A stretch of DNA of 35,184 nucleotides from NCBI GenBank assembly GCA_018668255.1, contig JABISZ010000073.1, forward strand, positions 1 through 35,184. Reading direction: 5' to 3'. The translations under genes and the position numbers were made by a program. Source of the DNA: Pseudomonadota bacterium (GTDB lineage Bacteria > Pseudomonadota > Gammaproteobacteria > Ga0077536). Below, one piece after another: positions 2,061 to 3,733 of the stretch. The notes under the pieces were generated by a model. It was given only the letters and a program-made list of their open reading frames with translations. It was not told where the DNA came from and ran no database searches. Each line of letters starts with the position of its first letter. The first letter of the stretch is position 1.

Positions 2061-2456
2061 GTGACTCGACCTATCTGGGGGCAACACCTCATACTCGACC
2101 TTGCGAAGTGTCCGCGCAACTTGCTCGTCAATGAATACCATCTTCGCTGCTGGGTGAAGGAATTAGTTGCTGCAATTGATATGGTATCTTATGGCGAACC
2201 CCAACTAGAGCACTTTGCAGCTCATTCTTTTGAGGCTGCTGGCTATACATTGCTTCAGCTTATAGAGACTTCTAATATTTGTGCACACTTTGCTGAAAAC
2301 TTGGGCCAAGTTTACATAGACATCTTTTCATGCAAGTCATTCGATAATGATACTGCAGAGTCTGTTTGTTCTAAATACTTTGAGCCGCAAGTTATCGAGA
2401 GACATTTGATTGACAGGGGTGCGTTTGAATCCCTTCCTGCAAGGGCTGCTGGATAA
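2061..2456 (+). CDS. SpeD-like pyruvoyl decarboxylase paralogue with altered active-site loop
   Basis: This 131-residue protein belongs to the S-adenosylmethionine decarboxylase (SpeD) superfamily, but not to its canonical branch. It aligns almost without gaps with the canonical SpeD two genes downstream. The residue matching the pyruvoyl-forming serine (S71, in ETSNICAH), the catalytic His (H76) and the catalytic Cys (C91, in DIFSC) are all kept, with the same 5 and 20 residue spacings. The canonical SESHISIHTWPE loop is replaced by IETSNICAHFAEN: the Glu before the serine becomes Thr, and the Trp and Glu of TWPE are lost. The serine eight residues earlier is Thr. A different substrate is therefore likely, possibly an amino acid. 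I chose GTG at 2061, with GGGGG eight bases before it. The longer start at 1992 lacks a binding site and adds unrelated residues. The stop directly abuts the speE start. Confidence 0.75.
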   Translation: MTRPIWGQHLILDLAKCPRNLLVNEYHLRCWVKELVAAIDMVSYGEPQLEHFAAHSFEAAGYTLLQLIETSNICAHFAENLGQVYIDIFSCKSFDNDTAESVCSKYFEPQVIERHLIDRGAFESLPARAAG

Positions 2457-3317
2457 GTGGGCGGGCAATTTGTAGAGACACTTTATTCGGGTAAGGTGTT
2501 CCAGGGTTTCGAGTTTAACGAAATACTCTTTGAGGCTAAAACGCCGTATCAAGCTATATCTATTTATCAAACCGATATGCTAGGTCGAGTACTCGTTCTT
2601 GATGGTGTCATTCAAACGACTGAAGCTGATGAGTTTATTTATCATGAGATGTTAACTCATATCCCACTCTTTTCTATTGACGGACCTGAGCGGATTTTAG
2701 TTGTTGGCGGTGGCGATGGTGGAACTGTGCGAGAGGCTTTGAAGCATCCGGTTAAACAGATTGACTTGGTCGAAATTGACCAAGGAGTAATAGACAGCTG
2801 TAGAACCTTCATGCCTACCTTGAATGATGCTGGTAAAGTTTTTGATGATCCAAGAGTTAATGTCGTCGTGCAAGATGCATTTGAATATATGAAAAATCAT
2901 CGCGGTGAATACGATGCTATTTTAATTGATTCAACTGACCCTATTGGTATGGCAGAGGCGCTCTATTCGAATAAGTTCTATCAACTGTGCTTTGATTCAC
3001 TATCTTCTGGTGGAGTGATTAGCGCCCAAGATGGCGTTGTTTTTTTTCAAAGGGATGAGGCTGCTAGCACGATATCCAAGTTCCGGGAGTTGGGGTTGTT
3101 TGCTGGAGCTTACACTGCAGCAGTCCCAACTTATTATGGGGGGCTTATGACTTTTGGAATTTCTGGATATAACAGCTGTGTTCTCGCCCCTAATCATGAT
3201 GTCTTAGAAAAGAGGCATGCAAGTTTAGAAGGCACCACAAGACACTATTCGCCTAAAGTCCACGTTGCCAGTTTTGTGATGCCACCCTGGATTAAATCCG
3301 CTTTGGATGGGGTCTGA
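2457..3317 (+). CDS. speE: Spermidine synthase SpeE
   Basis: This cytoplasmic aminopropyltransferase makes spermidine from putrescine and decarboxylated AdoMet. The protein has 286 residues, the normal length. It shows the N-terminal beta domain (residues 1-60, including VLDGVIQTTEADEFIYHEML), the AdoMet-type binding motif GGGDGG (84-89), the acidic VEID (105-108) that contacts the aminopropyl donor, and the catalytic DSTDP loop (158-162). YYGG with the following TFG sits in the C-terminal part, as in the family. The GTG start at 2457 follows the stop of the SpeD-like gene without any gap, so the two are translationally coupled; an AAGGG lies about 11 bases upstream. Canonical speD follows two bases after its stop. 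The cluster thus supplies both the enzyme and its decarboxylated donor. Confidence 0.95.
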   Translation: MGGQFVETLYSGKVFQGFEFNEILFEAKTPYQAISIYQTDMLGRVLVLDGVIQTTEADEFIYHEMLTHIPLFSIDGPERILVVGGGDGGTVREALKHPVKQIDLVEIDQGVIDSCRTFMPTLNDAGKVFDDPRVNVVVQDAFEYMKNHRGEYDAILIDSTDPIGMAEALYSNKFYQLCFDSLSSGGVISAQDGVVFFQRDEAASTISKFRELGLFAGAYTAAVPTYYGGLMTFGISGYNSCVLAPNHDVLEKRHASLEGTTRHYSPKVHVASFVMPPWIKSALDGV

Positions 3318-3319
3318 AT

Positions 3320-3733
3320 ATGAAGGCTGCCCCAGACCACTTCAAGGTTGATGCTACGGGAGTTCAATATGCTGGCGATCATTTATCGATTGAGCTTTGG
3401 GGAGCTGATCAATTGGTAGATGCGTCTCATATTGAGAGGGTATTGAGTCTTGGCGCAGAAACTGCTGGGGCAACTATTTTACATTCTTATTTTCATGCTT
3501 TTGGTGAAGGCATGGGTGTGAGTGGCGTTTTGGTTCTTTCTGAAAGTCATATTAGCATTCACACTTGGCCTGAACGCAGTTATGCTGCGATTGATATTTT
3601 TATGTGTGGCGACTGCAATCCTTATGATGCAATTCCTGTTATAAAAGCTGCTTTTCATCCGCAAAAAATAGACACACATTTTGTTAAGCGTGGGGTTATT
3701 GATAACACAACCCATTTGGAACTTGTATCTTGA
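3320..3733 (+). CDS. speD: S-adenosylmethionine decarboxylase proenzyme, canonical SpeD
   Basis: This pyruvoyl enzyme decarboxylates AdoMet to the aminopropyl donor used by SpeE. The 137-residue proenzyme is of the short class found in many bacteria and archaea. The self-cleavage site is ES at residues 75-76 within SESHISIHTWPE; S76 becomes the pyruvoyl group, H81 and C96 (DIFMC) are the processing and proton-transfer residues, and S68 is the extra conserved serine. The loop carrying W83 and E85 is intact, unlike in the paralogue at 2061. ATG 3320 lies two bases after the speE stop, so it is the last gene of the operon, and a hairpin with a T-rich tail follows. An intact SpeD here means that the upstream SpeD-like gene is not needed for AdoMet decarboxylation. 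Confidence 0.95.
   Translation: MKAAPDHFKVDATGVQYAGDHLSIELWGADQLVDASHIERVLSLGAETAGATILHSYFHAFGEGMGVSGVLVLSESHISIHTWPERSYAAIDIFMCGDCNPYDAIPVIKAAFHPQKIDTHFVKRGVIDNTTHLELVS

What the first reader, a model, noticed from the sequence alone, without database searches (positions are those of the whole stretch)
2061..3733. SpeD paralogue with altered substrate loop in a SpeD-like/speE/speD operon
The first gene keeps the pyruvoyl serine, the catalytic His and the catalytic Cys at the exact SpeD spacings, but ES is TS, TWPE is lost, and the serine eight residues before is Thr. Because a canonical speD is two genes on, the first enzyme likely does something else. SpeD homologues that became ornithine or arginine decarboxylases are known in bacteria; that would make this operon a full route from amino acid to spermidine.
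Basis: partly seen in the sequence, partly recalled or inferred. Interest (0 to 1): 0.6.

Follow-up and report, generated by a model that had tools for sequence, protein, structure and literature searches.

The report
Ornithine decarboxylase evolved from SpeD
A marine gammaproteobacterium carries a compact three-gene operon in which a re-purposed copy of the enzyme SpeD very probably makes putrescine from ornithine, so that the operon alone covers the route from ornithine to spermidine; this is a new member of an enzyme family already described in 2023.

Summary
ORF 2061-2456 encodes a 131-residue class-1b SpeD homologue with Ser71, His76 and Cys91 at the Thermotoga maritima spacings, but with ES changed to TS and HTWPE to HFAEN. 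It is followed without a gap by speE (2457-3317) and a canonical speD (3320-3733).

The protein has all four residues (Gln66, Thr70, Phe77, Tyr85) that Li et al. 2023 (PMC10407285) give as diagnostic of SpeDC, the pyruvoyl-dependent ornithine decarboxylase. The validated AdoMetDC (phage phiN3) and arginine decarboxylase (phage HTVC201P) that I checked lack at least one. It shares a clade with the Anaerolinea thermophila SpeDC, a species whose enzyme was assayed. The 98%-complete genome has no other recognised ornithine or arginine decarboxylase, and no agmatinase or agmatine deiminase, so arginine decarboxylation would lead nowhere. The operon is conserved in the family.

No activity was measured. 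SpeDC-speE-speD clusters are already published, so this is a new member of a known kind. I found no earlier report from Gammaproteobacteria in the papers searched. One by-product may be new: single-ORF SpeDC-SpeE fusions in two alphaproteobacterial genomes and one archaeal genome.

The parts
2061..2456 (+). speDC: SpeD-derived, predicted pyruvoyl-dependent L-ornithine decarboxylase, 131 aa, GTG start
   Evidence: PF02675 69 bits; below the AdoMetDC equivalog cut-off; four SpeDC-diagnostic residues; SpeDC clade; AlphaFold model pLDDT 93.7 matches T. maritima AdoMetDC 1tlu, TM 0.79/0.88
2271..2273 (+). codon of Ser71, predicted self-cleavage site and source of the pyruvoyl group (T. maritima Ser63)
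   Evidence: alignment; invariant in 49 homologues
2256..2258 (+). codon of Gln66, SpeDC-diagnostic residue 1
   Evidence: PMC10407285
2268..2270 (+). codon of Thr70, SpeDC-diagnostic residue 2 (Glu in AdoMetDC)
   Evidence: PMC10407285
2286..2288 (+). codon of His76, processing/catalytic His (T. maritima His68)
2289..2291 (+). codon of Phe77, SpeDC-diagnostic residue 3 (Thr in AdoMetDC, start of TWPE)
2313..2315 (+). codon of Tyr85, SpeDC-diagnostic residue 4 (usually Ala in AdoMetDC)
2331..2333 (+). codon of Cys91, catalytic Cys (T. maritima Cys83)
2457..3317 (+). speE: spermidine synthase (aminopropyltransferase), 286 aa, GTG start directly after the speDC stop codon
   Evidence: NF002010 302 bits over cut-off 260; TIGR00417 278 bits over 249.55
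3320..3733 (+). speD: canonical class-1b S-adenosylmethionine decarboxylase, 137 aa
   Evidence: TIGR03330 122 bits over cut-off 75.65; SESHISIHTWPE motif

Best explanation
The first gene encodes a SpeDC enzyme. The proenzyme is predicted to cleave itself between Thr70 and Ser71, turning Ser71 into a pyruvoyl cofactor. The pyruvoyl group would form a Schiff base with L-ornithine and decarboxylate it to putrescine, with His76 and Cys91 taking part as in AdoMetDC. SpeD (third gene) makes decarboxylated AdoMet, and SpeE (second gene) transfers its aminopropyl group to putrescine to give spermidine. Shown here: fold, conserved catalytic residues, diagnostic residues, operon, phylogeny and gene absences. 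Inferred: self-cleavage, substrate, product and flux.
For: All four SpeDC-diagnostic residues named in PMC10407285 are present. Validated counter-examples lack at least one: phiN3 AdoMetDC has Gln, Phe and Tyr but Asp for Thr; HTVC201P arginine decarboxylase has Gln and Thr but Ser for Phe and Gln for Tyr. The protein lies in one group (SH-aLRT 89) with A. thermophila SpeDC (L209; its 140-aa length equals that of the assayed BAJ63311), apart from all 26 SpeD-type rows. The genome (98% complete) has no PF01276, PF00491, PF04371 or PF01862 match, and its only PF02784 match is lysA. speDC-speE-speD is conserved in the family. Among family genomes with speD, a PLP-type OKR decarboxylase occurs in 2 of 16 with speDC and 6 of 10 without (Fisher p = 0.026, genomes not independent). 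Fold: T. maritima AdoMetDC is the top hit.
Against: No activity measured. Identity to the validated-species SpeDC is only about 42%. The tree rests on 129 columns, and a bona fide AdoMetDC (phiN3) is sister to the group. The genome is in 106 contigs, so an absent gene could be missed. Two family genomes have both speDC and an OKR decarboxylase.
Confidence: 0.9

Rival explanations
1. It is a SpeD-derived arginine decarboxylase (SpeDA) that makes agmatine, which is turned into putrescine or, after aminopropylation, into spermidine by a ureohydrolase.
For: SpeDA enzymes exist (PMC10407285, PMC9992855). Many SpeE enzymes accept agmatine (PMC11107197). The AdoMetDC-specific Pro is lost here, as in SpeDA.
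Against: Phe77 and Tyr85 are present, whereas the assayed arginine decarboxylase HTVC201P lacks both. The genome has no agmatinase/ureohydrolase and no agmatine deiminase. SpeDC can be told apart by the four residues.
Confidence: 0.05
2. It is still an AdoMet decarboxylase, redundant with the second SpeD, like the divergent phage phiN3 enzyme.
For: phiN3 SpeD shares Gln, Phe and Tyr with SpeDC and is an AdoMetDC (PMC9992855); it is the closest outgroup.
Against: phiN3 lacks the Thr. A canonical speD is in the same operon. The AdoMetDC equivalog model rejects the protein. Without it the genome has no known route to putrescine.
Confidence: 0.03
3. It is a non-catalytic partner of SpeD, like the trypanosome prozyme.
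For: The two paralogues are encoded together wherever the full locus was read in this family, and class-1b SpeD is a dimer (own knowledge).
Against: Ser, His and Cys are invariant in 49 homologues; a prozyme would be free to lose them. Homologues occur with no SpeD in the flanks read, up to 5 kb, and assayed homologues are active as purified single proteins (PMC10407285).
Confidence: 0.02

Closest known systems
SpeDC, pyruvoyl-dependent L-ornithine decarboxylase derived from class-1b SpeD (Anaerolinea thermophila BAJ63311, Ca. Atribacteria PIU25646 and others; PMC10407285)
   Same: Fold, pyruvoyl Ser/His/Cys, all four diagnostic residues, clustering with speE and speD
   Different: About 42% identity; gene order here is speDC-speE-speD (Chloroflexota loci: speD-speDC-speE); gammaproteobacterial host
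Phage-encoded SpeD-type ornithine decarboxylases (LBP, UCP01-04; PMC9992855)
   Same: Same family by motif; IMG/VR contigs carry homologues of up to 53% identity with all or nearly all diagnostic residues
   Different: Most of the 80 viral loci read have the gene alone; none has a detectable speE in the stretch read
Class-1b AdoMetDC (T. maritima 1TLU, B. subtilis SpeD)
   Same: Fold (TM 0.79/0.88, rmsd 1.5) and processing residues
   Different: ESH to TSN, HTWPE to HFAEN; 19% identity over the structural alignment; fails the equivalog cut-off

Membership tests
SpeDC | Pyruvoyl Ser, processing His and catalytic Cys at class-1b spacing | tested here: met
   Ser71, His76, Cys91; +5 and +20 as in T. 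maritima
SpeDC | Diagnostic Gln, Thr, Phe and Tyr in the central region | tested here: met
   Gln66, Thr70, Phe77, Tyr85; the published logo is a figure that is not held, so positions were matched by order and by the A. thermophila sequence
SpeDC | Falls in a clade with assayed SpeDC proteins, apart from SpeD | tested here: met
   67-row group with A. thermophila SpeDC (same species as an assayed enzyme, different isolate), SH-aLRT 89; short alignment
SpeDC | Genome lacks canonical ODC/ADC and the agmatine-to-putrescine enzymes | tested here: met
   genome 98% complete
SpeDC | Decarboxylates ornithine, not AdoMet, arginine or lysine | not testable with these tools
   Needs purified protein
Class-1b AdoMetDC (TIGR03330) | Score over the curated equivalog cut-off | tested here: not met
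   38.6 bits, cut-off 75.65
Class-1b AdoMetDC (TIGR03330) | Conserved Pro after the processing His (HTWPE) | tested here: not met
   HFAEN
SpeDA arginine decarboxylase | Agmatine-using enzymes (SpeB or AguA/AguB) in the genome | tested here: not met
   No PF00491 and no PF04371 match

The most novel reading that the evidence does not exclude
The operon's SpeDC, SpeE and SpeD work as a physical unit: a SpeDC/SpeD hetero-oligomer, or channelling with SpeE as the natural SpeDC-SpeE fusions hint, so that putrescine passes directly to SpeE.
Probability: 0.08. Interest if true: 0.5.

Novelty: new member of a known kind. Interest (0 to 1): 0.22.

Why it matters
It extends the SpeDC ornithine decarboxylase to a clade of Gammaproteobacteria, where a family search would call the gene AdoMet decarboxylase. 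It explains how these organisms can make putrescine without a PLP-dependent decarboxylase. The conserved operon, the many phage copies and the SpeDC-SpeE fusions make the spread of this route traceable.

Tried and rejected
The Thr-for-Ser change eight residues upstream was checked as a marker and dropped (both residues occur in both groups). Three of the four diagnostic residues alone are not enough, because phiN3 has three and is an AdoMetDC. The only PF02784 hit of the genome was checked as a possible hidden ODC/ADC and is lysA (470.9 bits against a 297.9 cut-off). One alignment call failed on a stop codon and was repeated without that row. The promoter scan found nothing above chance. The terminator-like sites (4 found, 2.0 expected) all lie inside coding sequence and were not read as signals. 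Rfam found only a tRNA in the window.

Full report
Observation. The window holds three tightly packed genes on the + strand: a SpeD-like ORF (2061-2456), speE (2457-3317, GTG directly after the TAA of the first) and speD (3320-3733). The first protein is a true AdoMet_dc family member (PF02675, 69 bits). It falls far below the curated AdoMetDC equivalog cut-off (38.6 against 75.65 bits), which the third gene's product passes (122 bits). The two paralogues are 28% identical. Ser71, His76 and Cys91 sit at the T. maritima spacings; ESH has become TSN and HTWPE has become HFAEN. An AlphaFold model (mean pLDDT 93.7) matches T. maritima AdoMetDC best (1tlu, TM 0.79/0.88, rmsd 1.5, 19% identity).

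What it is. Li et al. 2023 (PMC10407285) showed that SpeD homologues in many bacterial and archaeal phyla have become arginine (SpeDA) or ornithine (SpeDC) decarboxylases. They gave Gln, Thr, Phe and Tyr in the central region as diagnostic of SpeDC. The window protein has Gln66, Thr70, Phe77 and Tyr85. The Anaerolinea thermophila homologue (L209) also has all four, and its 140-aa ORF equals in length the assayed BAJ63311 of that species. The logo itself is a figure not held here, so I matched positions by order and by that sequence. Two assayed outliers were checked. The phiN3 phage AdoMetDC has Gln, Phe and Tyr but Asp for Thr. The HTVC201P phage arginine decarboxylase has Gln and Thr but Ser and Gln in place of Phe and Tyr (activities from PMC9992855). 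In these comparisons only the full set marks an ornithine decarboxylase.

Phylogeny. In a 97-row tree all 67 SpeDC-type rows, including the window's protein and A. thermophila SpeDC, form one group (SH-aLRT 89), apart from 26 SpeD-type rows. phiN3 and the pelagiphage arginine decarboxylases branch just outside. With 129 columns the inner forks are weak, and the placement next to phiN3 is a caution.

Genome. The window's assembly (2.3 Mb, 98% complete) has exactly two AdoMet_dc proteins, both in this operon. It has no OKR-type decarboxylase, no arginase/agmatinase family protein, no agmatine deiminase and no PvlArgDC. Its one Orn/Arg decarboxylase-family hit is lysA. So the SpeD paralogue is the only recognisable source of putrescine, and arginine decarboxylation would be a dead end. 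Uptake of putrescine was not examined.

Relatives. Orthologues occur in 15 other genomes of the same GTDB family; the 13 aligned are 62-75% identical. Fourteen were read in full, and all 14 lie in speDC-speE-speD order. Five genomes of the same genus (73-92% complete) lack speDC and speD. Among the family's genomes with speD, an OKR decarboxylase is found in 2 of 16 with speDC and 6 of 10 without (Fisher p = 0.026, not corrected for relatedness). That fits functional replacement of one ornithine decarboxylase by another, though four genomes with speD have neither. More distant homologues lie in Alphaproteobacteria, Thiotrichaceae, Chloroflexota, DPANN archaea and many phage contigs.

Mechanism. 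Predicted: self-cleavage at Ser71 gives a pyruvoyl group; ornithine forms a Schiff base and is decarboxylated to putrescine; SpeD provides decarboxylated AdoMet and SpeE joins the two. The residues and genes are shown; the reaction is inferred.

Novelty. The enzyme class and its clustering with speE and speD are published, including the plan of searching for two SpeD genes in one genome. What is added is a gammaproteobacterial family that uses it. I found no earlier mention in the papers held, but most subscription papers are not searchable here, and Li et al. estimate at least 1,000 homologues. It is a new member of a known kind.

Noticed in passing
L166:4968-6233, L167:4842-6239, L207:4620-5864: SpeDC and SpeE fused in one ORF (421, up to 465 and 414 aa) in two alphaproteobacterial MAGs and a Ca. 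Diapherotrites archaeon; in L167 the SpeDC end runs straight into SpeE without a linker. The papers read on SpeD fusions describe SpeD-SpeDC and SpeD-aminopropyltransferase fusions, not this one. Could be tested for activity and channelling.
   Followed up: partly
L081, L084, L097, L101, L104, L108, L118, L122: IMG/VR contigs with a SpeD gene directly next to a SpeDC gene, so some phages may carry both decarboxylases of the spermidine route.
   Followed up: no
L214 (Microcystis phage MaAM05, MW495066): Phage record with two SpeD homologues followed by speE and an agmatinase (speB): possibly a complete arginine-to-spermidine operon in a phage, if the second SpeD (ESH, HSFI instead of HTWP) is an arginine decarboxylase.
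   Followed up: no
G001-G005 (same genus as the window): None of the five same-genus genomes (73-92% complete) has speD or speDC, or an OKR decarboxylase: possible loss of spermidine synthesis in the genus, or regain in the window's lineage.
   Followed up: no
L138, L141: Contigs titled Klebsiella pneumoniae MAG carry this operon and match genomes of the window's family; the organism label in the record looks wrong.
   Followed up: no
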